Part shown: one piece after another, positions 28,247 through 42,404 of the stretch | Numbering within the stretch: the stretch's first letter is position 1 | How the letters are laid out: each line of letters begins with the position of its first letter | From: Halomonas sp. GT | Lineage (GTDB): Bacteria > Pseudomonadota > Gammaproteobacteria > Pseudomonadales > Halomonadaceae | Direction: 5' to 3' | NCBI RefSeq assembly: GCF_002082565.1 | Contig: NZ_CP020562.1 | Span: forward strand, 3,472,001 to 3,536,000 | DNA: 64,000 nt | Translations under genes and position numbers: made by a program | Notes under the pieces: generated by a model | Seen by the model: the letters and a program-made list of their open reading frames with translations, nothing else | Database searches by the model: none | What the model was told of the DNA's origin: nothing

Positions 28247-28296
28247 TGATGGACTCCTTGAGCACTTGAACTTGACTAACAGGACAACGGCGCGGC

Positions 28297-28326
28297 TTAT
28301 CAGGCGCGAAGCTTATCATATAGAAT
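28297..28326 (+). promoter_or_regulatory. Possible promoter of mtnBCD
   Basis: TTATCA (28297-28302) and TAGAAT (28321-28326) are separated by 18 bases, facing mtnB. The -10 has five of six consensus bases and the -35 four. It lies in the mtnA/mtnB divergent gap; no SAM-type riboswitch structure is evident there. Confidence 0.4.
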
Positions 28327-28357
28327 AGCTGCCACTAGAAGAGGCGACGCAGATCCT

Positions 28358-28948
28358 ATGATGACGCTACAAACTGAACTGCTGGCCGCCATTTCATGGG
28401 CGGCGCAGCAAGGCTGGACACCCGCCACCGGCGGAAACTTTTCCGCCCGTACCGAAGCGGGGTATTTGGTCACCGCTTCTGGCCGGGATAAAACCCGTAT
28501 TCAGGCCGATGACCTGCTGCTGTGCGACCTGGATGGCAAGGTACTCTCAGGCGATGGGAAGCCGAGCGCGGAAAGTGATCTTCACGCTGCGCTCTATCGC
28601 TTAGACGCATCGATTAACTGCGTGCTGCATACCCATACCCTAGCCAGCACCGTGCTGTCGCGGCGCTTTCCAAACGGTATTGAGCTAAATGGTTACGAGA
28701 TGCAAAAAGCCCTGCAGGGTAACGTGACTCATGATGCGACTATTCGCCTCCCCGTGGTACCAAATTCCCAAGATATGGACGAGCTAGCGGAGCATGTACG
28801 CAGCAGCTGGCCGATGCCCTGGGGCTTTTTGGTGGCGGGGCACGGTATTTATGCTGTGGGCGATAGCATCGCTAGTTGCCGTCGGCACTTGGAAGCCATT
28901 GAATTTTTACTGTCCTGTGTACTTGAAGAGAGCCGGTGGTCTAAATGA
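28358..28948 (+). CDS. mtnB: Methylthioribulose-1-phosphate dehydratase
   Basis: A 196-residue class II aldolase-fold zinc enzyme that dehydrates methylthioribulose-1-phosphate. 'GWTPATGGNFSAR' at the N-terminus, the zinc-ligand pair 'VLHTHTLAS' and the third ligand 'AGHGIYAVG' are present. Two adjacent ATGs (28358 and 28361) are possible. Its stop overlaps the mtnC start (ATGA), so it is translationally coupled to mtnC. Confidence 0.93.
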   Translation: MMTLQTELLAAISWAAQQGWTPATGGNFSARTEAGYLVTASGRDKTRIQADDLLLCDLDGKVLSGDGKPSAESDLHAALYRLDASINCVLHTHTLASTVLSRRFPNGIELNGYEMQKALQGNVTHDATIRLPVVPNSQDMDELAEHVRSSWPMPWGFLVAGHGIYAVGDSIASCRRHLEAIEFLLSCVLEESRWSK

Positions 28949-29631
28949 GTAACCCAGCTGTTCGCGCCGTTGTAACCGATATTGAAGGCACCACCACGGA
29001 TATTAACTTTGTCCATAAGGTGCTGTTCCCCTACGCCCAGGCCAAGTTGCCCGACTTTCTACGCGCGAATGCAGACACACCTGCGGTTGCCGAGAAAATT
29101 AGCGCCGTGCGCAGTGAAATGGGAGACCCTGATGCCACGCTTGACGCGGTCATTGCCCAGTTACAGCACTGGATCGAGACTGACCAAAAAGTCACGCCGC
29201 TGAAAGCACTGCAAGGCATGGTGTGGGCAGATGGCTATCAGCGTGGCGATTTTAAAGGCCACCTGTATAGCGACGTCGCCCCGGCGCTGCGCCAGTGGCA
29301 GCAGGTAGGCAAAGCGCTGTACGTGTATTCGTCAGGTTCCGTGCAGGCGCAGAAGCTGTTGTTTGGCTACAGCGATGAAGGCGACTTAACCCCCCTGTTT
29401 AGCGGCTACTTCGACACCCATATTGGCCATAAGCGCGAAGCCACGGCCTACCAGCGAATTATCGCTGAGCTTGACCTACCGCCGGAAGCGGTGCTGTTCT
29501 TGTCGGACGTGGTCGAAGAGTTGGACGCCGCCAAGCAGGCGGGCATGCAAACCCTGCAGTTAGTTCGCGAAGGCACCCAGGCGGGCAAAACCCACGCGTG
29601 CGTTTCCCGCTTTGATGAAATTGCGCTTTAG
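28945..29631 (+). CDS. mtnC: Enolase-phosphatase E1 (MtnC)
   Basis: A 228-residue HAD-type enzyme that enolises and dephosphorylates the diketone intermediate of methionine salvage to give acireductone. The nucleophile motif is 'VTDIEGTTTDINFVHKVLFP', a signature of E1 enzymes. 'YVYSSGSVQAQKLLFG' and 'LFLSDVVEELDAA' are HAD motifs II and IV. The start overlaps mtnB; mtnD follows after 11 bases. Confidence 0.95.
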   Translation: MSNPAVRAVVTDIEGTTTDINFVHKVLFPYAQAKLPDFLRANADTPAVAEKISAVRSEMGDPDATLDAVIAQLQHWIETDQKVTPLKALQGMVWADGYQRGDFKGHLYSDVAPALRQWQQVGKALYVYSSGSVQAQKLLFGYSDEGDLTPLFSGYFDTHIGHKREATAYQRIIAELDLPPEAVLFLSDVVEELDAAKQAGMQTLQLVREGTQAGKTHACVSRFDEIAL

Positions 29632-29642
29632 GAGAGCCTAGA

Positions 29643-30191
29643 ATGTCGCAACTGAAAGTATTTGCTGATCAGAACCCTAACGATGCCCTGCTGGACATCA
29701 CTGACGGCGAGCAGATAACTGCTGAGCTGAACAAGGTGGGTGTGCTGTTTGAACGCTGGGCAACGCCGGGCGAGATCGCCGACGATGCCACCCAGGAAGA
29801 CATTTTGGCGCTCTACCAAGACGATATCGACCGGGTGAAAGCCATGGGCGGCTACCAAACCGTTGATGTGCTGCACATGGTGCCCACGCACCCAGACAAA
29901 GACGCCATGCGCCAAAAGTTCTTAAACGAGCACCGCCATCACGAAGATGAAGTGCGCTTCTTCGTTAAAGGCCAGGGGCTTTTCTGCCTGCATATTGAAG
30001 ACAAGGTGTATCAGGTACTGTGTACCCGCAATGACCTGATCAGCGTACCCGCTAACACGCCCCATTGGTTTGATATGGGCCCAGCGCCAGAGTTCACTGC
30101 ACTGCGCTTCTTCGATAACGTAGAAGGCTGGGTGCCTCACTGGACAGAAAGCGATATCGCCGGGAAGTTTGATCGCCTGGATCAGCTGTAG
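29643..30191 (+). CDS. mtnD: Acireductone dioxygenase
   Basis: A 182-residue cupin enzyme. The metal ligands are visible in 'EHRHHEDEVRFFVKGQGLF' and a further His in 'NTPHWFDMG'. With iron it yields the 2-keto precursor of methionine plus formate; with nickel it gives an off-pathway product and carbon monoxide. The ATG follows AGGAGAG. It is the last gene of mtnBCD and precedes a strong hairpin. Confidence 0.95.
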   Translation: MSQLKVFADQNPNDALLDITDGEQITAELNKVGVLFERWATPGEIADDATQEDILALYQDDIDRVKAMGGYQTVDVLHMVPTHPDKDAMRQKFLNEHRHHEDEVRFFVKGQGLFCLHIEDKVYQVLCTRNDLISVPANTPHWFDMGPAPEFTALRFFDNVEGWVPHWTESDIAGKFDRLDQL

Positions 30192-30209
30192 CGCCAGCGT
30201 TCTGAGGTT

Positions 30210-30238
30210 GGCACCGTGGCCAAAACAGCCACGGTGCC
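30210..30238. terminator. Bidirectional hairpin between mtnD and mtnK
   Basis: A perfect 11-bp stem (GGCACCGTGGC 30210-30220, GCCACGGTGCC 30228-30238) with a 7-base loop lies between convergent genes. A T-run is lacking on both strands, so termination may be partial or Rho-assisted. Confidence 0.65.
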
Positions 30239-30276
30239 ATTATCGCGAAGTCCGTTATACCGAGAGGGGTAAGCGT

Positions 30277-31542
30277 TTATAACACCTCTTGCTGGTTATA
30301 CGTCTTGGCAAGCTCTGCCAGCGCGGCAAGATCACAGTAGGCTTCCGGCTCCATAATTAACGCTTGGCCCATCAGCACATTGCGTGCTTCAAGCTTAGCG
30401 CGTAGCGCGGTGTCTTCGATCTCTTCAAAGTCAGCGTTATGGGCCAGCGATAAAACGCGACGGTGCATTTCAATCCCGCAGTAGGCCAGCGCATCCAGAC
30501 GGATCTCTTCCAGTAAAGCATCACAGGCATCATCGGCACTATTGCCCTGGGCTTCAAACAGCGCCTTCGGAAACAGAATGCCGGTGCGCTCAGTTTGCCA
30601 AAGGTGGCGGAACTCCGCGTCAAAGCGGGTAAAGCACGCTTCAACCACGTCAAGAATCCACGCTTGGTAGGTATCAAGCTCATCGGCTTGGCGGTGGGCA
30701 GGCTGGCTGAAGTAGGCCATCAGGAAGTTGGCAACGGCCATGCCTAGATCAAAGGCCATTGGGCCATACTGGGAAAATTCTGGATCAATCACCCGCACAT
30801 CTGACGCGGTGGCCATAATTGACCCGGAGTGCAAATCACCATGCAGCATGGTTTCAGTATTCGCAGTGAACTTCATCAACAACCGCTGCACTTTAGCTTT
30901 TAAGCGTGTATTACGGCGCAGCTCATCTACTACCGGCGAAAGCTCCGGCGTATGACGGTTCATTTCGGCGCCATAATAAGGATCGGTAAACACCAGTGAT
31001 TCGGTAATCGCAGGAATCGCCACGTTGCCTGAAAACAGCCCCACGTCGGCTTTTTTCTCAGGGCTGTTTAAGGAGAGCTCCGAGCCACGAAACGCCATGC
31101 GCGCACAGAATTCACCGATAGTTTCGCCAAGCTGAGCAACCCGCTCGCCACTAATCAGCTTGCGGCGCAGAATCGTGTGCGGGTAGAGGTACTCCATAAC
31201 GATCAGCGCTTGGGGCTTGTCGAAATAAAACACTTCTGGGGCGACACCCGGCGCACGTTGGGCCTGGCGGACTAAGGCATAGTATTCAAAGTGAGCACGG
31301 TAGAGGGGCAGCGGCCAGCTCTCGCCTACCATACGCACATAGGGAAGCGCTTGCTTTACCACCACGCTGCCTACACTTCCCGATACGATGAATACCAGGT
31401 TGAGATTACCATCCCCTACTTCGCGGATCTGCCACTGCCCGGGGTTGCCGCCCACCCGGCTTGCCACTTCTTCTACATCACCTAGCCGCTGCGCTAGGGT
31501 GCCAACATCCAATGCCTGATAGGGCTGCTCGTACGCCACCAT
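30277..31542 (-). CDS. mtnK: Methylthioribose kinase
   Basis: A 421-residue kinase of the choline/aminoglycoside kinase fold that phosphorylates methylthioribose. The catalytic loop is 'TMLHGDLHSGSIMAT' and the metal-binding motif 'VIDPEFSQYGPMAFDLG'. 'VKQALPYVRMVGESWPL' is the N-lobe Lys region. ATG 31542, preceded by GAGGA, is preferred over an in-frame start 18 codons upstream. It lies opposite mtnBCD; together with mtnA the set covers MTR to the keto-methionine precursor. The nucleosidase and final aminotransferase are not in the window. Confidence 0.93.
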   Translation of the reverse strand: MVAYEQPYQALDVGTLAQRLGDVEEVASRVGGNPGQWQIREVGDGNLNLVFIVSGSVGSVVVKQALPYVRMVGESWPLPLYRAHFEYYALVRQAQRAPGVAPEVFYFDKPQALIVMEYLYPHTILRRKLISGERVAQLGETIGEFCARMAFRGSELSLNSPEKKADVGLFSGNVAIPAITESLVFTDPYYGAEMNRHTPELSPVVDELRRNTRLKAKVQRLLMKFTANTETMLHGDLHSGSIMATASDVRVIDPEFSQYGPMAFDLGMAVANFLMAYFSQPAHRQADELDTYQAWILDVVEACFTRFDAEFRHLWQTERTGILFPKALFEAQGNSADDACDALLEEIRLDALAYCGIEMHRRVLSLAHNADFEEIEDTALRAKLEARNVLMGQALIMEPEAYCDLAALAELAKTYNQQEVL

Positions 31543-31633
31543 TTGATTCCTCGCGAAAAATGATGCTTGTTTGTCATACCCCAGCAGGGTTGTCAAATGG
31601 GAGACGTCTTAGCCGTATTAACGACGTTATTAG

Positions 31634-32830
31634 TCACTCGACACTCTGCATCCAAACACAGTTACGACCTCGCCGCTTAGCTTCATACAGCGCTGCATCA
31701 GCATGAGCCAAAAAATCATCTGCCGTGAAACGCTCTGTCGGGCGTAACAGTGCCGCCCCTACGCTGACAGTAACAAGACGCTGCTCAGAGCAACCTTCAT
31801 TAGGGATATATAATGCTTCAATGCTATACCGGATGCGCTCCGCCGCTTGCCTAACTGCTTGTAGCGTTGCATTAGGCATCAACACGACAAACTCCTCGCC
31901 CCCAAAGCGCACGACCAAATCGGTATCACGGCTATTGGCTTGTATGGTGGTCGCCACTTGGCGAAGGCACTGATCACCTTGGAGGTGTCCATAATAATCG
32001 TTGTAGGCTTTAAAGAAATCGATATCAATTACCATCAGACCTAAAAAATTATGCTTATCAATAGCCTCCTGCCACCTGAGCGGCAGGATCGTATCGAACT
32101 GACGCCGGTTGGCAATGTTGGTTAGTGGGTCAGTAACCGACAAGCGAGATAACTTCCGATTGTCTTTTAAATAATAACCTGAGCGTATCTTTTCTTTTAA
32201 AACAAGTAGGTAGGCAGTTCTCTCACTTCGTTCAAGTCGGTAGTTAGCAAACAATGTAAACAACGCTTTAGCAACAATAGAAAACATTGCCAATCGCTTT
32301 GCTTCTTGTGGCATGGATTCATAGCCGACAATAAATACCAGCATAATCAAAACACCAATGCCGGATGACACGCAGGCATAGCTAAAACGAAGTGGGTAAA
32401 TAATATTTCCCACTACCAAAATAAGACCAAAAGAGAAAACATCTAAATAAGAGTATGGCTCTGTTGAGGTTGCAAATATCAAACATGAAACCAGCATGGC
32501 AGTAACAACTGTCGTCGCCATTAATGTTTCACGTATGGCAGGTGCAACGCCACGATAAACCCACCACAAAATTGTCAAGCCGATCGGCAGCATCACGCCT
32601 ATTCTTAACTGCACCGCCGTCACAAAAGAGTCAGGCCGAAAGCTGTAATCATTGATAAGAAACAAGCTATAAATAGAGGCTGCGATCAGCCCTGCCACCA
32701 CCATGTTGCGGCTACGATGTTGCTGAGTATCAGCTTCAAAGCGCGACTCAACCTCGTCGGTAAATTTCAATCGCCAAGGGCTTTTTTCAAGCTCTTCATC
32801 CACGGCCGTCAGCAGCGCATCATTAATCAT
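31634..32830 (-). CDS. Membrane-bound diguanylate cyclase
   Basis: A 398-residue protein. About six membrane helices (residues 45-205) precede a GGDEF domain with active-site motif GGEEF ('VVRFGGEEFVVLMP'). A product-inhibition site RDTD lies five residues upstream (RxxD), so both the catalytic and the inhibitory sites look intact. It would make c-di-GMP in response to an unknown membrane signal. The gene stands alone on the minus strand. About 225 A+T-rich bases separate it from the DeoR gene; I see no clear element there. Confidence 0.88.
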   Translation of the reverse strand: MINDALLTAVDEELEKSPWRLKFTDEVESRFEADTQQHRSRNMVVAGLIAASIYSLFLINDYSFRPDSFVTAVQLRIGVMLPIGLTILWWVYRGVAPAIRETLMATTVVTAMLVSCLIFATSTEPYSYLDVFSFGLILVVGNIIYPLRFSYACVSSGIGVLIMLVFIVGYESMPQEAKRLAMFSIVAKALFTLFANYRLERSERTAYLLVLKEKIRSGYYLKDNRKLSRLSVTDPLTNIANRRQFDTILPLRWQEAIDKHNFLGLMVIDIDFFKAYNDYYGHLQGDQCLRQVATTIQANSRDTDLVVRFGGEEFVVLMPNATLQAVRQAAERIRYSIEALYIPNEGCSEQRLVTVSVGAALLRPTERFTADDFLAHADAALYEAKRRGRNCVWMQSVE

Positions 32831-33055
32831 CCCTTGCCCCTCTACCGCTTGAGAGATTTTCTTTTGATTGCATCACCATGAAAAATTGAGGTTATCGCCT
32901 CCACGCTTAAACAGTGTGCCACACTAACGTTTAGTTAATAGCAAACTTCCTTCAGCTGTAAACAAATCTCTATAGTACTGATATCAAAAGGTAATGATTT
33001 ATTGGCCTTCTACCGTTAAAGACGCTTAGGGTGCATCGTCGTTAGCTTCAAAACC

Positions 33056-33808
33056 TCAGCTTAAAAACCTTACCCCCTGGGCGGCCAAAGGGCTGCGCAG
33101 TCTATCGGGTAGTGGACTATCGGTAATCACCGCATGGTAATCAGCAAGCTGGCCCGCGGCACAGCGTAGCGGCAAGTCGAATTTGGTTTTATCCAGCACT
33201 AGGATACGGTATGCGGCATGGGATAGCAGCGCTTCGCGAGCCATGACCTCGTCATCATTGTAGTCATATAAATGGCCATCACTGTCCATACCGCCCACCG
33301 AGACAATGCCGACATCCACACGGTAGCGTTGAAAAAAGCGCCAGGCATCGCCGCCAATCACATCTTGATCACGGCGCCGAACCCGCCCACCTGCCACCAC
33401 CAGCTCACACTCCATGGTGCACAATTTGATGAGCGCATGCAGATTATTGGTCATAATTTGCAGACCTTGTTTATCGCGCAAGGCGTCGGCCAGCTGTTCT
33501 ACCGTGGTACCCGTGCCTAAAAATAGCGATTGATGATGTTGGATCAGTGAAGCGGCTTGGCGGGCAATCTGACGCTTACCCGTTTGATTAACGATTTGGC
33601 GCTGGTCGTAGCCAATATTTTCCTGGTCAGGAAATGGCAACACTTCCCCATGGCGACGTAATACCAACCCTTGCTCAGCCAAGACACGAACATCCCCGCG
33701 CAATGTTTGTATCGACACATCAAACTGGCTAGCCAGCGACTCCAGGGGCTGGCGACCTTGCTGGCGCACCTGTGCCAACACGGCACGGCGGCGCTCGTTT
33801 AAGCCCAT
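33056..33808 (-). CDS. DeoR family transcriptional repressor
   Basis: A DeoR/GlpR-type regulator of about 250 residues. The N-terminal helix-turn-helix is 'LASQFDVSIQTLRGDVRVLA'. The C-terminal sugar-phosphate sensor fold carries 'LGTGTTVEQLADAL' and 'GIVSVGGMDSDGHLYDYN'. Such proteins usually respond to phosphorylated sugars. The start is taken at ATG 33808; GTG 33820, eight bases after AAGGTGG, is an equally possible start. It is divergent from an ABC importer/hydrolase operon, and the shared region contains three evenly spaced CGAAAGC boxes, so it probably represses that operon and itself. Confidence 0.85.
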   Translation of the reverse strand: MGLNERRRAVLAQVRQQGRQPLESLASQFDVSIQTLRGDVRVLAEQGLVLRRHGEVLPFPDQENIGYDQRQIVNQTGKRQIARQAASLIQHHQSLFLGTGTTVEQLADALRDKQGLQIMTNNLHALIKLCTMECELVVAGGRVRRRDQDVIGGDAWRFFQRYRVDVGIVSVGGMDSDGHLYDYNDDEVMAREALLSHAAYRILVLDKTKFDLPLRCAAGQLADYHAVITDSPLPDRLRSPLAAQGVRFLS

Positions 33809-33840
33809 TATTTTCTTCACGTTGGCGACCACCTTAGGAA

Positions 33841-33889
33841 CGAAAGCCTTTTTTTAGCAGGCGAAAGCCTGCCGCCATCAAACGAAAGC
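33841..33889. promoter_or_regulatory. Three CGAAAGC operator boxes with 21-bp period
   Basis: CGAAAGC occurs at 33841-33847, 33862-33868 and 33883-33889, each exactly 21 bp from the next, or two helical turns. Operators of several DeoR-family repressors contain TTTCG/CGAAA repeats. The boxes lie between the divergent DeoR gene and the importer operon. The middle box also forms GCAGGC-GAAA-GCCTGC, a small hairpin. Confidence 0.75.
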
Positions 33890-33956
33890 GTAGTGTCACG
33901 ATGTTGTAAGGCGATGACAGTAGTGTGATCAGTGTTCACCTACTGGAGGTTTTACG

Positions 33957-34937
33957 ATGTTGAAGCGCTCACTGTGCACTGCCGTTACGCTTGCAAGCTT
34001 TGCTCTATCGTCGTCACTGCTGGCTGATGACAAATTGGTGCTCTATACCAGTCAACCGAATAGCGACGCCCAGCAAACCGTGGATGCCTTTCAGGCTGCC
34101 TATCCTGACATTGAGGTGGAGTGGGTACGCGATGGCACCACTCGCCTGATGACGCGCCTACGCTCAGAGCTTTCTGCGGGTGTCAGCAACCCCGACGTAC
34201 TATTAATTGCTGACAGCATGACCATGACCTCACTCAAGCAAGAGGGCCATTTGCAGCCTTACCTCAGCCCAGAGCGGGAGGCTTATGACGAGGCGCTATA
34301 CGATCCGGAAGGCTACTTCTACGGCACTAAACTGATCACCACCGGGATTGTGTATAACACCGCTGCCGAACATCAGCCGCAGCGTTGGCAAGATCTGACG
34401 GGGCCTGACTATGAAGGCCTGGTCACAATGCCAAGCCCGCTCTATTCCGGCGCAGCGCTGATTCATATGGCTGCGCTGAGCGACAACCCCGACCTTGGGA
34501 TAGGCTACTACGAGGCGCTGCAAGCTAATCGTGCAGAAGCTCAGGGCGGGAATGGCGGCGTGTTCAATGCCGTTGCCTCAGGCACGAAGCCTTACGGCAT
34601 CGTGGTGGATTTCCTGCCGATTCGCGAGGCTGCCAAGGGTTCACCGGTTGAGTTTGTCTTCCCCGAAGAGGGCGTTAGTGCGGTCACAGAGCCCGTCGCT
34701 ATCATGCAGGGTGCCAACAACCCGGACGCCGCGCAGAAATTTGTCGATTTCGTGCTTTCCCAACAAGGCCAGGAACTCGTCAGCCAGCAAGGCTACCTGC
34801 CTGCCCACCCGGCGGTTGCACCGCCTGAAGGCTTTCCCGCTCGTGATGCTATCCAGCTAATGCCAATCAATATTGAGCAAGCACTGGAGCAGGAAGAGAC
34901 GTTGAAACAGCGCTTTAGCGATCTGTTTGGCGGCTAA
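33957..34937 (+). CDS. ABC importer substrate-binding protein (FbpA/AfuA superfamily)
   Basis: A 326-residue periplasmic binding protein with a Sec signal peptide (about 1-23, cleaved after LLA). It is of the iron(III)/phosphonate/sugar-phosphate type (PBP-like class II), beginning 'DKLVLYTSQPNSDAQQTVDA'. The paired Tyr residues that FbpA uses to hold iron are not seen at the expected place, where 'YGIVVDFLPIREAA' occurs instead. An organic phosphate or phosphonate, as in AfuA or PhnS relatives, is therefore more likely than iron. ATG 33957 follows GGAGG. It is the first gene of a five-gene operon. Confidence 0.82.
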   Translation: MLKRSLCTAVTLASFALSSSLLADDKLVLYTSQPNSDAQQTVDAFQAAYPDIEVEWVRDGTTRLMTRLRSELSAGVSNPDVLLIADSMTMTSLKQEGHLQPYLSPEREAYDEALYDPEGYFYGTKLITTGIVYNTAAEHQPQRWQDLTGPDYEGLVTMPSPLYSGAALIHMAALSDNPDLGIGYYEALQANRAEAQGGNGGVFNAVASGTKPYGIVVDFLPIREAAKGSPVEFVFPEEGVSAVTEPVAIMQGANNPDAAQKFVDFVLSQQGQELVSQQGYLPAHPAVAPPEGFPARDAIQLMPINIEQALEQEETLKQRFSDLFGG

Positions 34938-34939
34938 CC

Positions 34940-36640
34940 ATGACACCGTCGCTTAACGTTGGCAGCCAGCACCGCTGGCTGCTCAGCCTAATCACACTCA
35001 CGGTGGTGCTATTAAGCCTAGCGCCTAGCCTGCGGCTACTGGCTGAGGCACTTAGTGACCTTGGCCAGGGCAGCGAATCACCGCTATGGAAGGTGCTTAA
35101 CGCAGCGAGTACTTGGCGAGCGCTGTGGCACAGTGTGTATACCTCGGGTCTGGGCATGTTGATTGCTCTGGTGCTGGGTAGCCTATTCGCCTTCGTGATT
35201 ACGCTGACCGATATCCGTGGCAAAGCGTGGCTCGTGTTCTGCTTTATGTTGCCGATGATGATTCCCCCCCAGGTGACGGCGCTGAGCTGGCTACAGCTGT
35301 TCGGCCCCGCCAGCCCATTGCTGAAAAGCATTGGTATGGCACCGCCGCTGGGCAGCCCTCAGCCACTATACTCAGCGGAAGGCATTGCTCTGTTGCTGGG
35401 GATCCAAAGCGCACCGCTGGTCTTTTTAGCACTGCGCACCTCACTGATCTCACTCCCCCGCGAGCTTATCGAAGCGGCCCGTATCAGCGGCGCGCGCCAG
35501 ACCCAAGTCTGGGGGCAGATTATTTTGCCAGTCACTCGGCACGGTTTAATTGCCGGGGCGGCGATGGCGTTTATTTCTAGCCTGGGCAACTTCGGTATCC
35601 CTGCCATGCTGGGGATTCCAGCGGGCTACTACGTGTTACCGACGCTGATCTACCAGCGTATGGCTAGCTTTGGTACTGGCGTGCTGACAGAAATGGCAGC
35701 GCTATCGTTATTGATTGGTGTGCTGGCACTGGCAGGCGTTGCCTTGCAGCAATACTGGATGAATCGTAGCCGCTTTGGCTTAGGCGGCCATAGCGGTCGC
35801 TCTCATGACTTTACCCTGGGCCGCTTTCGGCCAGCGGTGACGACCGTACTCGTCGGCGTTTTATTGGTGATTCTCGTCGCACCACTCGCGGCGCTGGTGG
35901 TCAGCTCATTGGTGCCCGCCATGGGGGTTCCCCTTAGCTTCGATAGCGTGACATTAAACGCCTATCACGAAGTGATTGGCCGCCAAGGCGCCACCTGGCG
36001 CGCTGTACGTAATAGCCTATGGCTAGCAGGCGGTGCCGCGCTGGTGCTTATGCTGTGCAGCCTGCCGCTAGCATATCGCCTGCAGCGACTCCCGCCCCGT
36101 CTCCAGCAGCTCACGCTCAGCGCTATTGAACTGCCCTACGCACTACCCGGCGTAGTGCTGGCGATCGCCTGCATTTTGCTGTTCGTACGCCCACTGCCGC
36201 TGATCAACGTAGCGCTCTACGGCACGCTCGGGCTGATCTTTGTGGCCTATCTAGCGCGTTTTTTAGTGGTATGCCTCAAACCCGTTAGCGCCAGCCTAGC
36301 CCAGCTTGATCCCTCCTTGGAAGAAGCCGCACAACTGGCGGGGGCAGGCCCGTGGCGACGGCTAACCACGATCGTACTGCCGCTGATTGCACCGTCGCTA
36401 TTTGCCGGGGGGCTGTTGGTCTTCCTGCTGGCGGTGAACGAGCTGACAGTATCGGCACTGCTTTGGAGCGCCGGCAACGAAACGTTGGGCGTGTTGATTT
36501 TTAACCTTGATGAGGGCGGTGAAAGCGTGCTGGCATCTGCGGTATCGGTACTGGTGGTCTTAATGGTCGCCACGCTGATGCTGTCGCTCAGCCTGCTCGC
36601 CCCTCGTTTACCCAAAGGAGTCGTGCCATGGCAGGGCTAG
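34940..36640 (+). CDS. ABC importer fused double permease (FbpB/AfuB type)
   Basis: A 566-residue permease with about twelve helices made of two homologous halves, as in FbpB/AfuB. Each half has a coupling loop: 'ELIEAARISGARQTQVWGQI' (about residue 175) and 'SLEEAAQLAGAGPWRRLTTI' (about residue 455). It starts two bases after the stop of the binding protein, and its end overlaps the ATPase gene by 13 bases. The substrate is set by the partner binding protein and is unknown. Confidence 0.87.
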   Translation: MTPSLNVGSQHRWLLSLITLTVVLLSLAPSLRLLAEALSDLGQGSESPLWKVLNAASTWRALWHSVYTSGLGMLIALVLGSLFAFVITLTDIRGKAWLVFCFMLPMMIPPQVTALSWLQLFGPASPLLKSIGMAPPLGSPQPLYSAEGIALLLGIQSAPLVFLALRTSLISLPRELIEAARISGARQTQVWGQIILPVTRHGLIAGAAMAFISSLGNFGIPAMLGIPAGYYVLPTLIYQRMASFGTGVLTEMAALSLLIGVLALAGVALQQYWMNRSRFGLGGHSGRSHDFTLGRFRPAVTTVLVGVLLVILVAPLAALVVSSLVPAMGVPLSFDSVTLNAYHEVIGRQGATWRAVRNSLWLAGGAALVLMLCSLPLAYRLQRLPPRLQQLTLSAIELPYALPGVVLAIACILLFVRPLPLINVALYGTLGLIFVAYLARFLVVCLKPVSASLAQLDPSLEEAAQLAGAGPWRRLTTIVLPLIAPSLFAGGLLVFLLAVNELTVSALLWSAGNETLGVLIFNLDEGGESVLASAVSVLVVLMVATLMLSLSLLAPRLPKGVVPWQG

Positions 36641-37686
36641 CAATTCAACAGGTCACCAAACAGTTTGGCGATCATCGTGCGGTCAATGACCTCTCGCTAG
36701 AGATTGCGCCAGGGGAATTTGTGGCACTGCTGGGCCCCAGCGGCTGCGGTAAAACTACCATGCTACGCATGTTGGCGGGGTTCGAAAATGTCACTGGCGG
36801 CGAAATACGCCTGAACGATACGCTGCTAGCCAGCCGCCATCACCATGTACCACCAGAACAGCGCAACATGGCGATGGTGTTTCAGTCATACGCGCTCTGG
36901 CCGCATATGAACGTGGCTGACAACGTCGGCTACCCACTCAAACTGCGCCGCATTCAGGGCAATGAGTATCAACGCCGAGTTGCTCATGCGCTGGCACAGG
37001 TAGCCTTGGAACCCTATGCACAGCGTTCGCCACAGGAGCTTAGCGGTGGTCAGCGCCAACGGGTCGCGCTAGCCCGCTGCCTAGTGACTGACCCTGCGGT
37101 TGTGTTATTGGATGAACCGCTGGCCAATCTAGACCGTAATCTGCGTGCCTCCATGGAACACAGCTTCGTGGATTTTCATCGCCGCACCCGCGCGACGATG
37201 GTGTACGTCACTCACGATCAAAGCGAAGCCATGGCGATGGCGGACCGCATTGCCGTAATGCGCGACGGTGAGCTAGTACAGTGGGCAACGCCCGAAACGC
37301 TTTATCGCGAGCCGCGCAGCGAATGGGTGGCCAGCTTTATCGGCCAAGGTAGCCAGTTGGCCATTGCCAACGGCGCACCGGGGCAGCGGCTAACGGAAAG
37401 TGCCCTGATGCAAGGGCTGGCTGCGGCACACAACACCCGCGCCCAAGCTGCACGTCAACCCGTCCTGGTCCGCCCCGAGCATATTCGCGTAGACGCCCAA
37501 GCTCCCAATGAACATGACCTTACCGGGCGCGTCGAGCGGCTAACCTTTCGTGGTGAACGCTATGAGTTACACCTGCGCCTGCCCAGCGGCGAAGCATTAC
37601 TGGCTTACCATCACTGCGCGCTTGAAGAGGGTCAGCAAGTCGCTTTGCGGCTACTAGAAGGCTGGTGCCTGGAGCCTGACCAATGA
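36628..37686 (+). CDS. ABC importer ATP-binding protein (FbpC/AfuC type)
   Basis: A 352-residue ATPase. Walker A is GPSGCGKTT, the signature is LSGGQRQRVALARCL and Walker B is VVLLDEPLANLD; a C-terminal TOBE-like domain follows. It starts inside the 3' end of the permease gene and ends with an ATGA overlap onto the metallo-hydrolase gene. The tight coupling ties the hydrolase to the importer. Confidence 0.88.
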   Translation: MAGLAIQQVTKQFGDHRAVNDLSLEIAPGEFVALLGPSGCGKTTMLRMLAGFENVTGGEIRLNDTLLASRHHHVPPEQRNMAMVFQSYALWPHMNVADNVGYPLKLRRIQGNEYQRRVAHALAQVALEPYAQRSPQELSGGQRQRVALARCLVTDPAVVLLDEPLANLDRNLRASMEHSFVDFHRRTRATMVYVTHDQSEAMAMADRIAVMRDGELVQWATPETLYREPRSEWVASFIGQGSQLAIANGAPGQRLTESALMQGLAAAHNTRAQAARQPVLVRPEHIRVDAQAPNEHDLTGRVERLTFRGERYELHLRLPSGEALLAYHHCALEEGQQVALRLLEGWCLEPDQ

Positions 37687-38765
37687 GCGCCCATGTTCAT
37701 CTATTAAGTGGGTTGGGTGATAAAGGTCCTGCGGCTATCTTGGTCGAAACCAACGGCAAACGACTGCTGCTGGATGCAGGGGGTGCGCTGCACCCTGGGG
37801 AACCTATCACCTGGGCAGGTGACTTGGACGTAGACGCTATTCTGATTAGCCACGACCATATTGACCATATCGGCGGTGTTGCTGAACTGCCCGATACCAT
37901 CCCGCTCTACTGCACGCCCTTAGTCGCTAACGCATTGCCGAAACACCGCGCTTGGCAGCCTTTGCCAGCACGCGGCAGCCTTATGATCGAAGGTCTCAAG
38001 GTGACCACCGGCCAAGCGGGACACTCGCTGGGTGGTGTTTGGCTGCACTTGGACGTGGATGGCGGCATTTTCTACAGCGGCGATGCCTGTTTTGAATCCC
38101 GCTTGTTTCCATTCGATACACCGCCACCTGCACGCACGGCGCTGCTGGACGCTTCCTATGGCAACTACGACCAACCCCAGGAAAGCTGTGTGCAGGCTAT
38201 TCGTCTGCAGCTTGACCAGCCGTTAGTATTACCGGTGCCTGAAACGGGGCGCGCCCTGGAAATGGCCCTTTGGCTGTCGGAAGAGGCCTACCGTCGTCAG
38301 CTCCCTTTCGCCATTGACCCGATTATTCGCGATAACCTCGCCGTACTGCTAGCACTGCCAAGCGACTTACGCCGCCCAGGTCTCGACAGTGCGATTAACG
38401 CACTACTAGAACGGCATAATGCTTCGCAGCCAGTGCTGCAGTTGGTCAGTGATCGCAATGATACGCCCGACCGATGGCTCAATTACCAGCTACTACACAC
38501 CGGTTATTTAACGCCTGAACGTCAAGCCCAGCTTGCCGCAGGCGAGGTGCGTTGGCAGCGCTGGAACGTACACCTGCGTGCATCGCATCTAGTAGCGCTT
38601 GCCGACCAGCTAGGCGCCACTCAGGTAGTCCCGTTATTTACTCCGCTCACTGGACACTGCTTAAGCGAATGGCATCAACGCCTGGGGCAGCGACTGTGTA
38701 CCCACCGCACCCTAGAGGCTCTTCCGCATCAGGCCACGCGCCCCACCGCCCATTTAACTTTTTAG
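37683..38765 (+). CDS. Beta-CASP-like metallo-beta-lactamase hydrolase
   Basis: A 360-residue metallo-beta-lactamase-fold enzyme. Residues seen are D31 (end of first strand), H57-D-H59-I-D61-H62 (HxHxDH), AGH114SLGG, GD134 and LLD156ASYG. After that comes a beta-CASP-like insert: 'VLPVPETGRALEMAL' (182-196) resembles 'PVFALGRAQELL', and 'RASH302LVALADQLGATQVVPL' resembles the 'SGHAxxxDL..VIPVH' motif. Beta-CASP enzymes are mostly nucleases (RNase J, CPSF73, SNM1). The first position of the insert is D rather than E and part of the second motif is degenerate, so the activity may be on a small phosphoester. Its gene overlaps the importer ATPase gene. Confidence 0.75.
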   Translation: MSAHVHLLSGLGDKGPAAILVETNGKRLLLDAGGALHPGEPITWAGDLDVDAILISHDHIDHIGGVAELPDTIPLYCTPLVANALPKHRAWQPLPARGSLMIEGLKVTTGQAGHSLGGVWLHLDVDGGIFYSGDACFESRLFPFDTPPPARTALLDASYGNYDQPQESCVQAIRLQLDQPLVLPVPETGRALEMALWLSEEAYRRQLPFAIDPIIRDNLAVLLALPSDLRRPGLDSAINALLERHNASQPVLQLVSDRNDTPDRWLNYQLLHTGYLTPERQAQLAAGEVRWQRWNVHLRASHLVALADQLGATQVVPLFTPLTGHCLSEWHQRLGQRLCTHRTLEALPHQATRPTAHLTF

Positions 38766-38775
38766 GAAATTAACG

Positions 38776-39222
38776 ATGTCCGCAGTGATTGTTGATGTTG
38801 ACGGCACGCTTGCCGAATTCCACCCCACCGATGTACACGAATGGGTACTTGGCCCCGCCAAACAGTGGGATCCTTTTTTTGCCCATATGGCCGAAGCGCC
38901 AGTCATTGAGCCAGTGGCGCGGCTAGTCAAGCTGCTGAAAGCCCAAGGCCAACAGATCGTTATCTGCAGCGGCCGACCTGACAGCCACCGAGAACATACC
39001 CAAGCATGGCTCACTAGACACGCCATTCCCTTCGATGCCATGTATCTGCGCCCGCAAGGCGATGACCATGTGGATGATGAAGAGGTAAAAGCCGCACTAC
39101 TCAGTCAAATGCGTAGCGACGGTTTCATCCCCTGGTTAGTGCTAGACGACCGCGATGCGGTAGTTGCCCAATGGCGCGCGCTCGGACTTACTTGCCTACA
39201 GTGCGCGCCGGGAGATTTTTAA
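38776..39222 (+). CDS. HAD phosphatase like the 3'-phosphatase domain of T4 polynucleotide kinase
   Basis: A 148-residue stand-alone HAD protein. The nucleophile/acid pair is D7-V-D9-G-T, motif II is S65-G-R, K105 follows, and motif IV is D124-D-R-D. The tail 'RDAVVAQWRALGLTCLQCAP' and final GDF closely follow the end of the T4 Pnkp phosphatase half. T4 Pnkp removes 3'-phosphates and 2',3'-cyclic phosphates from nucleic acid ends. There is no kinase half here. The gene follows the beta-CASP gene by 10 bases and is the last of the operon. Its 3' end overlaps the convergent PadR gene by 35 bases. The substrate in this bacterium is inferred, not shown. Confidence 0.78.
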   Translation: MSAVIVDVDGTLAEFHPTDVHEWVLGPAKQWDPFFAHMAEAPVIEPVARLVKLLKAQGQQIVICSGRPDSHREHTQAWLTRHAIPFDAMYLRPQGDDHVDDEEVKAALLSQMRSDGFIPWLVLDDRDAVVAQWRALGLTCLQCAPGDF

Positions 39223-39757
39223 CTAACTTGTGAGGCGTGTTCAGACGCTCTTCCACCCAGACAAGCCAAGTGTGAGTCAAACGCTGACCTAGCTGCAACG
39301 TATACAGCGGCGCACGCTCAGCGTCAGTTAATTGTTCTGGCGCTGAGAACCACATCGTTTCAATGGTCTTATACATAGCTAGCCGTTGTTCAAGCTCCTG
39401 CTTTAAAGTCTGAAACTCTTTTTCACGCGCTTCTTCCGGCCATACTTCCCACGCAAAAAATTTCGCAAAAAGAGGTGAACGGACAGGTGCGTGATCGAGC
39501 GGCTCCGACAGCCAAGCATGAAGCTCATTAATACCCAGCTGGGTAATCGAGTAGATCTTTTTATCAGGCCGATCTTGCTGCGCGATTGACTCGCATCTCA
39601 CTAAATCAGCGTTCCGCATTTTGTCTAGCTCTCTGTAGACCTGCTGATGGCTGGCATGCCATACATGGGCCATGCCTGCCTTGAAACGCTGGAGCACGTC
39701 ATAACCACTGCCCGGCTCACGCCTAAGTGTTACCAGCAACACTCCCCGAAGTGACAT
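39188..39757 (-). CDS. PadR family transcriptional regulator
   Basis: A 189-residue PadR-type regulator. The N-terminal winged helix ('LVTLRREPGSGYDVLQRFKA', then 'HASHQQVYRELDKMRNADLV' with recognition helix and wing) is followed by a C-terminal helical domain of the Vir type ('TLQLGQRLTHTWLVWVEERL'), which forms the dimer. ATG 39757 follows AAAGGAG. It is divergent from a small membrane-protein gene with two matching palindromes between them, so it probably represses both. The ligand is unknown. Confidence 0.87.
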   Translation of the reverse strand: MSLRGVLLVTLRREPGSGYDVLQRFKAGMAHVWHASHQQVYRELDKMRNADLVRCESIAQQDRPDKKIYSITQLGINELHAWLSEPLDHAPVRSPLFAKFFAWEVWPEEAREKEFQTLKQELEQRLAMYKTIETMWFSAPEQLTDAERAPLYTLQLGQRLTHTWLVWVEERLNTPHKLVKNLPARTVGK

Positions 39758-39774
39758 ATCGCCCTCTCCTTTCA

Positions 39775-39792
39775 TATGCACACAGTTGCATA
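39775..39792. promoter_or_regulatory. Palindromic operator 1 (PadR)
   Basis: TATGCA-CACAGT-TGCATA: two perfect 6-base half-sites around a 6-base spacer. It covers the region just ahead of the PadR ribosome-binding site, so binding could block padR transcription. An identical half-site pair lies 46 bp away. Confidence 0.75.
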
Positions 39793-39820
39793 ATAAATGA
39801 CCTTTTCACTAAACTATACC

Positions 39821-39838
39821 TATGCATCTAGTTGCATA
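39821..39838. promoter_or_regulatory. Palindromic operator 2 (PadR)
   Basis: TATGCA-TCTAGT-TGCATA, the same half-sites and spacer length as operator 1, on the side of the divergent membrane-protein gene (ATG 39877). The two sites are 46 bp apart start to start, which would allow two dimers to bind independently or loop. Confidence 0.75.
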
Positions 39839-39876
39839 TAAGCCGCTATCCACAACCTATAAGAAAGAGATTTGGC

Positions 39877-40245
39877 ATGCTTACCCTACACATCACCTCT
39901 TCGTTTCTCGCTCTCGCGTTAGGCGCAGGCATACTGTTGCTAGCCAAAGGAACCCGCCAACATAAATACGCTGGCCGTGTTTGGGTTCTAGCCATGGTAA
40001 GTTCAGCCATCAGCTCCTTTTGGCTAGGAGGAGGCGTTCTGCCCGTATTTGGTCAACTAGGCCCTATTCACTTGCTATCGGTATGGATACTGTGGGCAGT
40101 ATTCCAAGCGATTCGCACCGCACGTCGGCAGGAAATTACCCACCACCGTGAATGGATTCGCGGGGCTTACATAGGTCTCGTGGTGGCATTTGTAGGAACA
40201 TTGCTACCTGGTCGTTGGGTTTCAACGCAGCTAGGATTGTGGTGA
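39877..40245 (+). CDS. Small membrane protein, DUF2306-like
   Basis: A 122-residue protein with four predicted helices. 'LHITSSFLALALGAGILLLA', 'HKYAGRVWVLAMVSSAISSF' and 'HHREWIRGAYIGLV' (conserved His-Arg pairs at the membrane edge) match DUF2306-type proteins of unknown function. ATG 39877 is preceded by AAGAAAGAG. In-frame codons upstream overlap operator 2 and are not used. It is probably under PadR control. Confidence 0.75.
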   Translation: MLTLHITSSFLALALGAGILLLAKGTRQHKYAGRVWVLAMVSSAISSFWLGGGVLPVFGQLGPIHLLSVWILWAVFQAIRTARRQEITHHREWIRGAYIGLVVAFVGTLLPGRWVSTQLGLW

Positions 40246-40262
40246 AAATGCGCTGTAAACTC

Positions 40263-40287
40263 TGACGCCCCGCTAAGCGGGGCGTCA
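40263..40287. terminator. Hairpin between convergent genes
   Basis: A perfect 11-bp stem, TGACGCCCCGC and GCGGGGCGTCA, with a 3-base TAA loop. No T-run is present on either strand. It lies between the DUF2306-like gene and the symporter gene and could serve both. Confidence 0.65.
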
Positions 40288-40317
40288 GTGGCAATATCTG
40301 CGTTGTGTTAGCCGTGG

Positions 40318-41913
40318 TCAGCCTGCAAACGAGGCGTACATAATCACTACCAGCACCACAAGTACAATGCCGGTTGGCACAGCGCCCTTCCAAGGAGTGA
40401 GATCGACATCGCCCGAATCTTCTTGCACCCAGGCGGTGGCGCGGGGATGCAACTTACCAATGATCAGCATCACGGCAACCAACAGCACGAACACAGCGGC
40501 GACAAAGTGGAACTCATGCATTACCATCGGCAGCTTGTTAAACGGCGGAACAAAGTAGCCTGCTGCGATCAGCAAACACCCCCCTACCAACGCTATTTTA
40601 GCCGCCATGGGAGGCACGCGTTTCGTTAGAAGCCCCACCAGAACAACCGCTAAAATAGGGATAAAGTAAATCGCGTTCATCTTCTGCAGATAGCCAAATA
40701 GACTATCCTGGCCTGCCAACAGTGGCGCAATAATCATGGTCGTTACGGCCATGATCCAGCCAAACACCTTGCCTGATTTCACGACCTCTTCTTCAGTGGC
40801 ATCTTTTTTAAGCACACCTTTATAAATGCCCAAACTGAAAATCGTGGTGGTGCTGTTTAGCGCCGAGTTAAACGAGGAGAGAATCGCCCCAACCATCACC
40901 GCAGCAAAAAAACCTGTTAGGTACGGCGGCAGCACGTTAAATACCAAGTGACCATACGCTTCGTCCGCGCGAATGCCTTGGTCGGCGTAAAGATGGTAAG
41001 CAATGATCCCCGGCAGCACCAGATAGAGCGGACCTAACAGTTTAAAGAAACCGGTCAGCAACACGCCTTTCTGACCTTCTGCAAGGTTTTTAGCCGCAAA
41101 CGTACGTTGAATAATTTGCTGATTCGTTGTCCAGTAAAACAGGTGTAGTAACAGGACGCCGGTAAAAATAGTCGAGAATGGTACTTGCTGGTCAGGGCCA
41201 CCTACCGAGTTAAATTTACTCGGGTCACTCTCTTTAAGAATGCTCCAGCCTTCCATAATGCCGCTGCCATTGCTCACTGCCTGAAGGCCGAAATAAACGA
41301 TGACAAAGCCGCCGATCAATAGACCGACGCCATTCAATGTATCTGAGACCGCCACCGTACGCAGGCCACCAAACAGCGCATAGACGGCGCCAATGATACC
41401 AACCGTCCAGACAGTGGCCCACAGCAGCACTGCACTCGACTCAATGCCAGTAAGCCCTTGAAGATCAAGCATGCCCTGTAAACCAATAGCCCCTGAATAG
41501 AGAATGATAGGCAACAGCACGACGGCGTAAGCAATCAAAAAAATTACGTTGGCAATCAGCTGAGTACCGTTATCAAAACGGATTGCTAACAGCTGTGGAA
41601 GGGTTGCGATCCCACTTTTAAGAAAGCGCGGTAGGAAAAACAGGGCTAGTGCTACCAGAGCAATTACCGCAATCACTTCCCAGGCCATAACACTCAAACC
41701 ATCGGTAAATGCAGAACCGTTTAGCCCAACCATCTGCTCGGTTGAGAGATTGGTCATCAGCATTGAGGCGGCAATGAGTGGAAAGGTTAGTGTCCTTCCG
41801 GCCAAAAAATAGCCACTCGTGCTTCGGTGATCATCTTTGCGCGTGATGCGCCACGTAACAAAGGCCACCAGGCCTGTAAAAAAGATAAACGATGCCAGCG
41901 TTAGGGCATGCAT
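40318..41913 (-). CDS. Sodium:solute symporter (SSS family)
   Basis: A 531-residue transporter with about 14 helices of the SSS/SglT type. '[20 protein letters not shown]' at the N-terminus and '[19 protein letters not shown]' in helix 8 carry sodium-site positions of the family. '[20 protein letters not shown]' is another conserved block. It resembles sugar/sodium symporters (YidK/SglT branch), but the substrate cannot be fixed. It stands alone on the minus strand. Confidence 0.87.
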
Positions 41914-42404
41914 GGGAAGGTCCTTGGGAGTAGTCGCTTATCGGCAGGCGACGCAGTGAATGTAGGTAAAATTACCAATATGCGCGGGCATTCTAAGGAG
42001 ATGAATCGATTCAACTATTATTCTTTAGTAGCAACAAAGAATAAATGAGAAGGTTTTTTACTACTCATGTGGCTTTTTTACAAGGCGTTAATGAAGCTGG
42101 TCTCTATGGTAGTCGAGGCTAATTCACACGAACCAAGCCACTCAGTCCACGCCAGTCTGTCCATGTCACAATGCTGTTGCCTTGGCGACCACGAAAATTT
42201 GATTCCATCGAATAGTGCAGCCTCTTTTCCACATTATTTGCCTGTCGCGTGGTATAGCGTTAATGAGAAAACTGGACAGCCTTCATAAAAGCCGCTGAAA
42301 TCGTCCTATAAGATGTGACTAGTAACGTTATTTAACGCTAGACAATCAGCGCTAATACTTTCCTACTTACTAGCATCAACAGTTAACTTGGAGCAGAAGC
42401 GATA
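41914..42404. other. Intergenic region before the chemosensory operon
   Basis: About 490 bases between the divergent symporter and MCP genes. TATAAG at 42307-42312 is a possible -10 for the MCP gene, without a good -35. No sigma-28 promoter is seen. A 73-codon frame at 42067-42288 has no ribosome-binding site and no recognisable features, and I do not call it. Confidence 0.5.

What the first reader, a model, noticed from the sequence alone, without database searches (positions are those of the whole stretch)
33957..39222. Importer operon ending in a beta-CASP hydrolase and a stand-alone T4-Pnkp-like 3'-phosphatase
Seen: five tightly coupled genes (overlaps or gaps of 13 bases or less): FbpABC/AfuABC-type binding protein, fused permease and ATPase, a metallo-beta-lactamase with beta-CASP-like motifs (HxHxDH, AGHSLGG, LLDASYG, PVPETGRALEM, RASH), and a HAD protein whose N-terminal DVDGT and C-terminal DDRD...GDF track the T4 polynucleotide-kinase phosphatase half. 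Known: beta-CASP enzymes are mostly nucleases; the Pnkp phosphatase removes 3' and cyclic phosphates; AfuA/PhnS-type binding proteins can bind sugar phosphates or phosphonates. Inference: a dedicated pathway that imports a phosphodiester or oligonucleotide-like compound, cuts it and dephosphorylates it. I know of no described system with this combination.
Basis: partly seen in the sequence, partly recalled or inferred. Interest (0 to 1): 0.8.

Follow-up and report, generated by a model that had tools for sequence, protein, structure and literature searches.

The report
Phosphate-scavenging importer with swappable phosphatases
A salt-loving bacterium carries, like many other proteobacteria, a gene set that seems to import a phosphorus-containing organic compound when phosphate is scarce, cut it with an enzyme shaped like an RNA-cutting nuclease, and strip off the phosphate with whichever of four unrelated phosphatases its lineage has acquired.

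The parts
33056..33832 (-). DeoR/GlpR-family repressor, divergent from the operon
   Evidence: Pfam DeoRC 8.3e-41, HTH_DeoR 2.2e-8; a DeoR-type gene was recognised in 22 of 22 loci with the HAD phosphatase
33841..33887 (.). Three CGAAA repeats at 33841, 33862, 33883, spaced 21 bp: candidate DeoR operator
   Evidence: three repeats with the same spacing in 12 of 12 same-genus upstreams; no such repeats in 7 of 7 LacI- or SorC-type upstreams (single TTTCG in 2 of the 7)
33893..33909 (+). PHO-box-like site GTGTCACGATGTTGTAA, ending 48 bp before the SBP start
   Evidence: one mismatch to the pattern. With the recalled E. coli matrix the gap is not significant alone: rank 12 of 17,979 positions, shuffle p 0.095
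33957..34937 (+). Periplasmic substrate-binding protein of the AfuA/PhnS2/FbpA superfamily
   Evidence: PhnS2 TIGR03261 132.9 bits, below its 392.75 cut-off; AfuA 4r72 E 4.4e-17
34940..36640 (+). Permease with two fused BPD_transp_1 domains
   Evidence: PhnU2 171.2 bits, below cut-off 593.25
36628..37686 (+). ABC ATPase with TOBE domain
37683..38765 (+). beta-CASP-fold metallo-hydrolase, predicted intracellular phosphodiesterase
   Evidence: the activity is inferred
38776..39222 (+). Stand-alone HAD phosphatase of the T4 Pnkp phosphatase fold
   Evidence: the activity is inferred

Best explanation
The operon is an organic-phosphorus uptake and salvage module. The binding protein captures a small phosphate-bearing organic compound in the periplasm; the ABC transporter imports it intact. 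Inside, the beta-CASP MBL hydrolyses a phosphodiester (or cyclic phosphate) bond and leaves a phosphomonoester; the neighbouring phosphatase (HAD-Pnkp type here) releases phosphate and an alcohol, sugar or nucleoside. Expression needs two signals: PhoB under phosphate starvation, and relief of a sugar-type repressor (DeoR here), probably by the phosphomonoester that the MBL makes. Shown here: gene order, folds, cross-species conservation of importer plus MBL, interchange of four phosphatase folds and three repressor families, enrichment of PHO-box-like sites. Inferred: substrate class, both reactions, cytoplasmic site, repressor ligand, PhoB control. Unknown: the substrate.
For: 53 of 54 MBL loci hold SBP, permease and ATPase; 48 of these 53 have a phosphatase right after the MBL (histidine phosphatase 15, HAD 12, HAD plus histidine phosphatase 10, DSP-like 7, SurE 4) (families of representatives). 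Repressor and phosphatase largely go together: SorC with SurE 4 of 4, DeoR with HAD and/or histidine phosphatase 23 of 23, LacI with DSP in 6 of 8 (plus L063 and L098). In family-level sampling, strong MBL orthologs in 18 of 151 genomes, all 18 among the 30 with the SBP; HAD at E<=1e-80 in 10 of 151, all 10 among the MBL genomes. PHO-box matrix: best site of the locus in the upstream gap in 18 of 46 loci, rank 5 or better in 27 of 46; 150 column-scrambled matrices gave means 1.9 and 8.1, maxima 6 and 15. In the own genome the PHO-like pattern lies before a PstS homolog, before two PstC homologs and before this operon. Na/Pi cotransporter genes beside 2 of 4 SurE-type loci, L069 and L139. AfuA phosphate-side positions (S37 as Thr, S148, G149) look kept in the SBP, by pairwise alignment at low identity.
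Against: No substrate or activity is shown. 12 of 30 genomes with a close SBP lack a strong MBL match; in 10 of those 12 none of the four phosphatase types nor the MBL was found by the importer, in one (L147) a histidine phosphatase follows the ATPase directly, in one (L152) only SBP, a permease piece and a histidine phosphatase remain. In two of the 10 (L151, L153, same genus) an inositol-monophosphatase-family gene lies under 2 kb downstream on the same strand, but beyond a gene pair on the other strand. So the importer can do without the MBL. 5 of 53 loci have no recognised phosphatase after the MBL (L046, L047, L070, L098, L143). LacI genes also sit by a histidine-phosphatase locus (L063) and a phosphatase-less one (L098). 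The window's own PHO-like site is weak, and the whole-genome pattern gave 36 matches against 25 for the reversed control. The beta-CASP structures in the 50 rows shown are nucleases or subunits of nuclease complexes, which favours nucleic-acid-like substrates over simple sugar diesters. The E. coli PhoB sites were recalled, not fetched.
Confidence: 0.66

Rival explanations
1. As the best explanation, but the substrate is specifically nucleotidic (2',3'-cyclic nucleotide, dinucleotide or short oligonucleotide): the beta-CASP enzyme cuts it and a nucleotidase-type phosphatase yields a nucleoside. (A sub-case of the best explanation, so the odds overlap.)
For: beta-CASP fold; Pnkp-type phosphatase; SurE 5'/3'-nucleotidase in the same slot in 4 of 53 loci; one of two DSP proteins tested reaches the Pfam cut-off of the RNA-repair PTP-SAK family.
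Against: Histidine phosphatases fill the slot in 25 of 53 loci, nearest to alpha-ribazole phosphatase in the two tested but far below that model's cut-off. SBP relatives with known ligands bind hexose phosphates or pyridoxal phosphate. No further gene family recurred as part of the unit in 35 loci.
Confidence: 0.35
2. The importer takes up a phosphomonoester (sugar-phosphate-like); the phosphatase does the main job and the MBL is an accessory that widens the range to diesters or cyclic esters.
For: 12 of 30 SBP genomes lack a strong MBL match; L147 has importer plus histidine phosphatase only; SBP relatives AfuA and P5PA bind phosphomonoesters.
Against: All 18 MBL genomes have the importer, and importer plus MBL is kept in 53 of 54 loci including 5 without a recognised phosphatase, so the MBL is the steadier partner.
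Confidence: 0.2
3. Phosphonate (C-P) import: a PhnS2/PhnU2/PhnT2-like system whose MBL acts on a phosphonate ester or a cyclic intermediate, as PhnP does.
For: Best NCBIfam models for SBP and permease are PhnS2 and PhnU2.
Against: All far below the curated cut-offs; the MBL is beta-CASP rather than PhnP-like (TIGR03307 E 0.023, 14 bits against a cut-off of 272.25); no further gene family recurred as part of the unit in 35 loci.
Confidence: 0.1
4. Ferric iron importer with bystander hydrolases, as current annotation ('iron ABC transporter permease') suggests.
For: FbpA-like SBP family and database names (for example).
Against: Constant MBL and frequent phosphatase linkage, PHO-box-like sites, and AfuA, once predicted to be iron-binding, is a hexose-phosphate binder.
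Confidence: 0.03

Closest known systems
Agrocinopine catabolism acc system of Agrobacterium (AccR, AccA-E, AccF, AccG)
   Same: ABC import of a sugar phosphodiester, phosphodiesterase, then a putative phosphatase; the phosphomonoester product is the ligand of the repressor (passages of PMC4526662). AccR as a DeoR-type regulator is recalled.
   Different: Different transporter family and different enzymes (families of AccA, AccF and AccG recalled, not compared here); acc is an opine system, whereas this module has PHO-box-like sites and a beta-CASP enzyme.
AfuABC hexose-phosphate transporter and P5PAB pyridoxal-phosphate transporter
   Same: Same SBP superfamily by sequence; organophosphate ligands (passages of PMC4546632 and PMC8427247).
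   Different: Low similarity; of AfuA's three essential sugar contacts only D206 appears kept (H205 and E229 align to Val, my reading); no MBL or phosphatase gene is named in the passages read.
Ugp glycerophosphodiester uptake (UgpBAEC with UgpQ or GlpQ)
   Same: Phosphate-starvation-controlled uptake of organophosphates; UgpB, UgpC and GlpQ are PhoB-dependent in Phaeobacter sp. MED193 (PMC10132767, section 7 read). UgpQ as the intracellular diesterase is recalled.
   Different: Different SBP family and a diesterase of the GDPD family instead of beta-CASP (both recalled).
beta-CASP nucleases (CPSF73, aCPSF1, TTHA0252, RNase J, SNM1)
   Different: The position I assign to motif C is F319 instead of histidine; it is a single 360-residue unit, shorter than the chains matched, and operonic with a small-molecule importer.
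T4 Pnkp 3'-phosphatase domain
   Different: No kinase domain; T4 R176 has no clear counterpart in the alignment (residue role recalled).

Membership tests
beta-CASP metallo-beta-lactamase family | MBL fold with inserted CASP domain | tested here: met
beta-CASP metallo-beta-lactamase family | MBL metal motif HxHxDH plus H and D ligands | tested here: met
   D61, H62, H114, D134 invariant, H57 and H59 at least 90% in 97 sequences
beta-CASP metallo-beta-lactamase family | Motif A acidic residue (D/E in ExTYG) and motif B histidine | tested here: met
   D156 in DASYG and H297 in RWNVH invariant in 97 sequences; the profile aligns DASYG to ESTYG. Motif names and the motif-B match are recalled and by eye
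beta-CASP metallo-beta-lactamase family | Motif C histidine of the RNA-type members | tested here: not met
   F319 invariant in 97 sequences at the position I assign to motif C. SNM1-type members are recalled to lack it too, so the family assignment stands, the RNA-type one does not
T4 Pnkp phosphatase (HAD_PNKP) | Pfam model and fold | tested here: met
T4 Pnkp phosphatase (HAD_PNKP) | DxDGT, SGR and DDR catalytic motifs | tested here: met
   D7, D9, G10, T11, G66, R67, D124, D125, R126 invariant, S65 at least 90%, in 64 sequences
T4 Pnkp phosphatase (HAD_PNKP) | Second phosphate-contacting arginine (T4 R176, recalled) | tested here: inconclusive
   Falls at a gap edge in the alignment; an invariant K29 lies near
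T4 Pnkp phosphatase (HAD_PNKP) | 3'-phosphatase activity on nucleotides | not testable with these tools
   Needs an assay
AfuA-type hexose-phosphate binding proteins | H205, D206, E229 sugar contacts | tested here: not met
   Align to V217, D218, V243 in the window SBP (my reading; residues from PMC4546632)
2-aminoethylphosphonate transporters PhnSTU2 | Score above the curated cut-offs | tested here: not met
   132.9 of 392.75, 171.2 of 593.25, 320 of 457.7 bits
Pho regulon | PHO box upstream | tested here: inconclusive
   Enriched across 46 loci but weak in the window itself
Pho regulon | PhoB-dependent expression | not testable with these tools
   No expression data; two PhoB-dependent PotA/PotD-named proteins of Phaeobacter MED193 are a lead only, identity not checked

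The most novel reading that the evidence does not exclude
A whole branch of the beta-CASP fold, known so far as nucleases, has become a catabolic phosphodiesterase for a small imported phosphorus compound. It sits in a widespread, phosphate-starvation-controlled module in which importer and beta-CASP enzyme stay fixed while the phosphatase is replaced by four unrelated folds and the repressor by three families.
Probability: 0.5. Interest if true: 0.8.

Novelty: new variant of a known kind. Interest (0 to 1): 0.68.

Why it matters
It points to an unassigned, widely carried route for using organic phosphorus in Proteobacteria, found here in halophilic, marine, soil and enteric species and now annotated as 'iron ABC transporter' plus 'MBL fold hydrolase'. 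It would give the beta-CASP fold a job outside nucleic-acid processing, or else reveal dedicated uptake of nucleotide-like diesters. The swapped phosphatases are a natural experiment: four folds apparently recruited for one reaction step, which narrows the substrate to something whose monoester all four can accept.

Tried and rejected
Iron transport: rejected as unlikely (see rivals). Functional inference from recurrent neighbours: an all-against-all comparison of ORFs of 35 loci found no gene family beyond importer, MBL, phosphatases and regulators that recurs as part of the unit; besides shadow ORFs, some transporter- and regulator-like families recur in 3-6 loci. RNA elements: Rfam gathering search of 30000-42000 gave 0 hits. 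Sigma-70 promoter scan of 33000-40000 gave 0 sites. Literature: searches showed no listed paper describing the importer plus beta-CASP plus phosphatase unit; several lists were capped (12 of 2,444 papers shown, 15 of 34), I opened five papers only, and the library holds only CC-licensed PMC papers. My recollection of an afu operon in the S. meliloti phosphate-starvation response found no paper and is not used. A Ruegeria transporter paper (PMC10130141) had nothing relevant in the one passage found. One locus, L138 (Rhizobium leguminosarum), has a related MBL without this importer. Class-wide sampling hit only 2 of 369 genomes, both of the window's genus, and phylum-wide 17 of 398: the module is widespread but patchy. 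A possible fifth phosphatase type, the inositol-monophosphatase-family gene near L151 and L153, was dropped because a gene pair on the other strand separates it from the importer.

Counts contain close relatives: 12 of the 54 loci are same-genus, and L070 and L143 are both Azospirillum; a rough one-per-lineage subset for the PHO-box test gave rank 1 in 14 of 25.
Full report
WHAT IS THERE. The window is from a Vreelandella-type (former Halomonas) chromosome: the MBL is 94% identical to V. alkaliphila and the window lies in a single 4.16-Mb contig. A divergent DeoR/GlpR-family gene at 33056-33832 completes the unit. Between them lie three CGAAA repeats spaced exactly 21 bp and a PHO-box-like site ending 48 bp before the first gene.

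IS THE LINKAGE REAL. In 151 genomes sampled from the family, 18 have a strong MBL ortholog (E 2.6e-75 or better); 74 further genomes have only weaker matches at E<=1e-3, to other MBL proteins. In all 18 the permease and ATPase genes lie beside it; the HAD gene is beside it in 10 of 18, all of the window's genus. Of 10 order-level hits among 293 genomes, the 7 outside the genus show permease, ATPase, MBL and HAD, with an ORF between MBL and HAD that is a histidine phosphatase by profile in the 4 examined more widely (L101-L104) and by its visible RHAQS motif in the other 3. I then examined 54 loci with wider flanks: the window, L032-L050, L061-L071, L089-L104 and L137-L143. All three importer subunits are present in 53; the exception is L138.

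THE SURPRISE. What follows the MBL is nearly always a phosphatase, but not the same one: histidine phosphatase 15, HAD 12, both 10, DSP-like 7, SurE 4, none recognised 5, of 53. Pfam confirms the families on representatives: His_Phos_1, HAD_PNKP, SurE; the DSP match is near or below Pfam's cut-off (DSPc 33.0 bits against 33.5 in L066 and 19.4 in L067; PTP-SAK above its cut-off only in L066), so that label is the least certain. Repressors change too. In one search DeoR was recognised in 23 loci, always with HAD and/or histidine phosphatase; SorC-like in 4, always with SurE; LacI in 6, always with DSP; none of the three in 20. Two of those 20 do have a LacI gene next to the module that fell under the score limit: L063, with a histidine phosphatase, and L098, without a phosphatase, so the LacI-DSP pairing is 6 of 8. 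The upstream repeats follow the repressor: CGAAA repeats 21 bp apart in 12 of 12 same-genus upstreams, a TTTCG-CGAAA palindrome in the 6 alphaproteobacterial-type DeoR upstreams compared, a TGCACACGTGTGCA-like palindrome in the 4 LacI upstreams compared, and no CGAAA repeats in these or in the 3 SorC upstreams. Interchange of unrelated phosphatases at one step argues that the reaction, not a polynucleotide-specific domain, is what selection keeps.

PHOSPHATE CONTROL. A matrix from seven recalled E. coli PhoB sites was run over 46 loci and tested against 150 column-scrambled versions. The operon's upstream gap holds the best site of its locus in 18 of 46 (scrambled mean 1.9, maximum 6) and one of the best five in 27 of 46 (mean 8.1, maximum 15). 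In the window itself the matrix is not significant (shuffle p 0.095, rank 12 of 17,979 positions). In the own genome a relaxed pattern found 36 matches against 25 for its reversed control; of the 30 places inspected, one precedes a PstS homolog, two precede PstC homologs (one above, one below the PstC cut-off) and one precedes this operon. So PhoB control is well supported for the module as a whole and only plausible for the window.

WHAT SPEAKS AGAINST. The close SBP occurs in 30 of 151 family-level genomes but a strong MBL in only 18. In the other 12, neither the MBL nor any of the four phosphatase types was found by the importer in 10; a histidine phosphatase directly follows the ATPase in L147; and L152 keeps an SBP, a permease piece and a histidine phosphatase. 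L151 and L153 have an inositol-monophosphatase-family gene within 2 kb, beyond a gene pair on the other strand. The imported compound may thus be usable without the MBL, or the lone importers serve another solute. At ortholog level the HAD was seen only with the MBL (10 of 10; one further match of 30% identity in G020).

SUBSTRATE. Among solved structures the SBP is nearest by sequence to 8x1a, named an iron-compound-binding protein, and to AfuA; among curated models to PhnS2, far below the cut-off. AfuA's phosphate-side residues look kept and its sugar-side ones mostly not, at low identity, so this is a hint only. beta-CASP, Pnkp and SurE together hint at a nucleotide-like diester or cyclic phosphate; DeoR, LacI and SorC repressors and the AfuA relatives hint at a sugar phosphodiester. 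I leave this open, at roughly 35% for nucleotidic.

COMPARISON. The closest system in logic is agrocinopine uptake: importer, phosphodiesterase, putative phosphatase, and a repressor that senses the phosphomonoester product (passages of PMC4526662). As far as I recall, the families of transporter and enzymes differ. Phaeobacter sp. MED193 shows PhoB-dependent Ugp and GlpQ proteins and also two PhoB-dependent proteins named PotA and PotD with neighbouring locus tags (PMC10132767, section 7); since this module's ATPase is named PotA in some records, they could be it, but I could not check the sequences. No listed paper in the searches named under Tried and rejected describes the unit.

VERDICT. 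A real, conserved, apparently undescribed organophosphate module; new variant of a known kind (ABC uptake plus intracellular release of phosphate) with an unusual enzyme and a striking evolutionary pattern.

Noticed in passing
window 27206-31596: Methionine-salvage-like genes (names recalled from the sequences, not searched) lie just upstream; mtnD- and/or mtnK-like ORFs are also near the operon in L032, L033, L034, L037 and L039, all of the same genus.
   Followed up: partly
L069 9978-11642; L139 8156-9820: Na/Pi cotransporter family genes next to the SurE-type module in Phyllobacterium and Nitratireductor, possibly phosphate handling after hydrolysis.
   Followed up: no
L036, L038: HAD and ATPase reading frames split in L036 and SBP split in L038, either pseudogenes or assembly errors.
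   Followed up: no
L061 (Enterobacter hormaechei plasmid p48880_VIM_4): The module sits on a conjugative clinical plasmid near IS elements, with the highest PHO-box score of the 46 loci (19.7 bits).
   Followed up: partly
L147, L152: Importer genes with a histidine phosphatase but no MBL, suggesting MBL loss or a monoester-only version.
   Followed up: partly
alignment A1, P0112: A relative with TQDQQDH in place of the SHDHxDH metal motif, possibly inactive.
   Followed up: no
L151 2739-3767; L153 12016-12903: Inositol-monophosphatase-family genes within 2 kb of MBL-less importers in one genus, separated by a gene pair on the other strand.
   Followed up: partly
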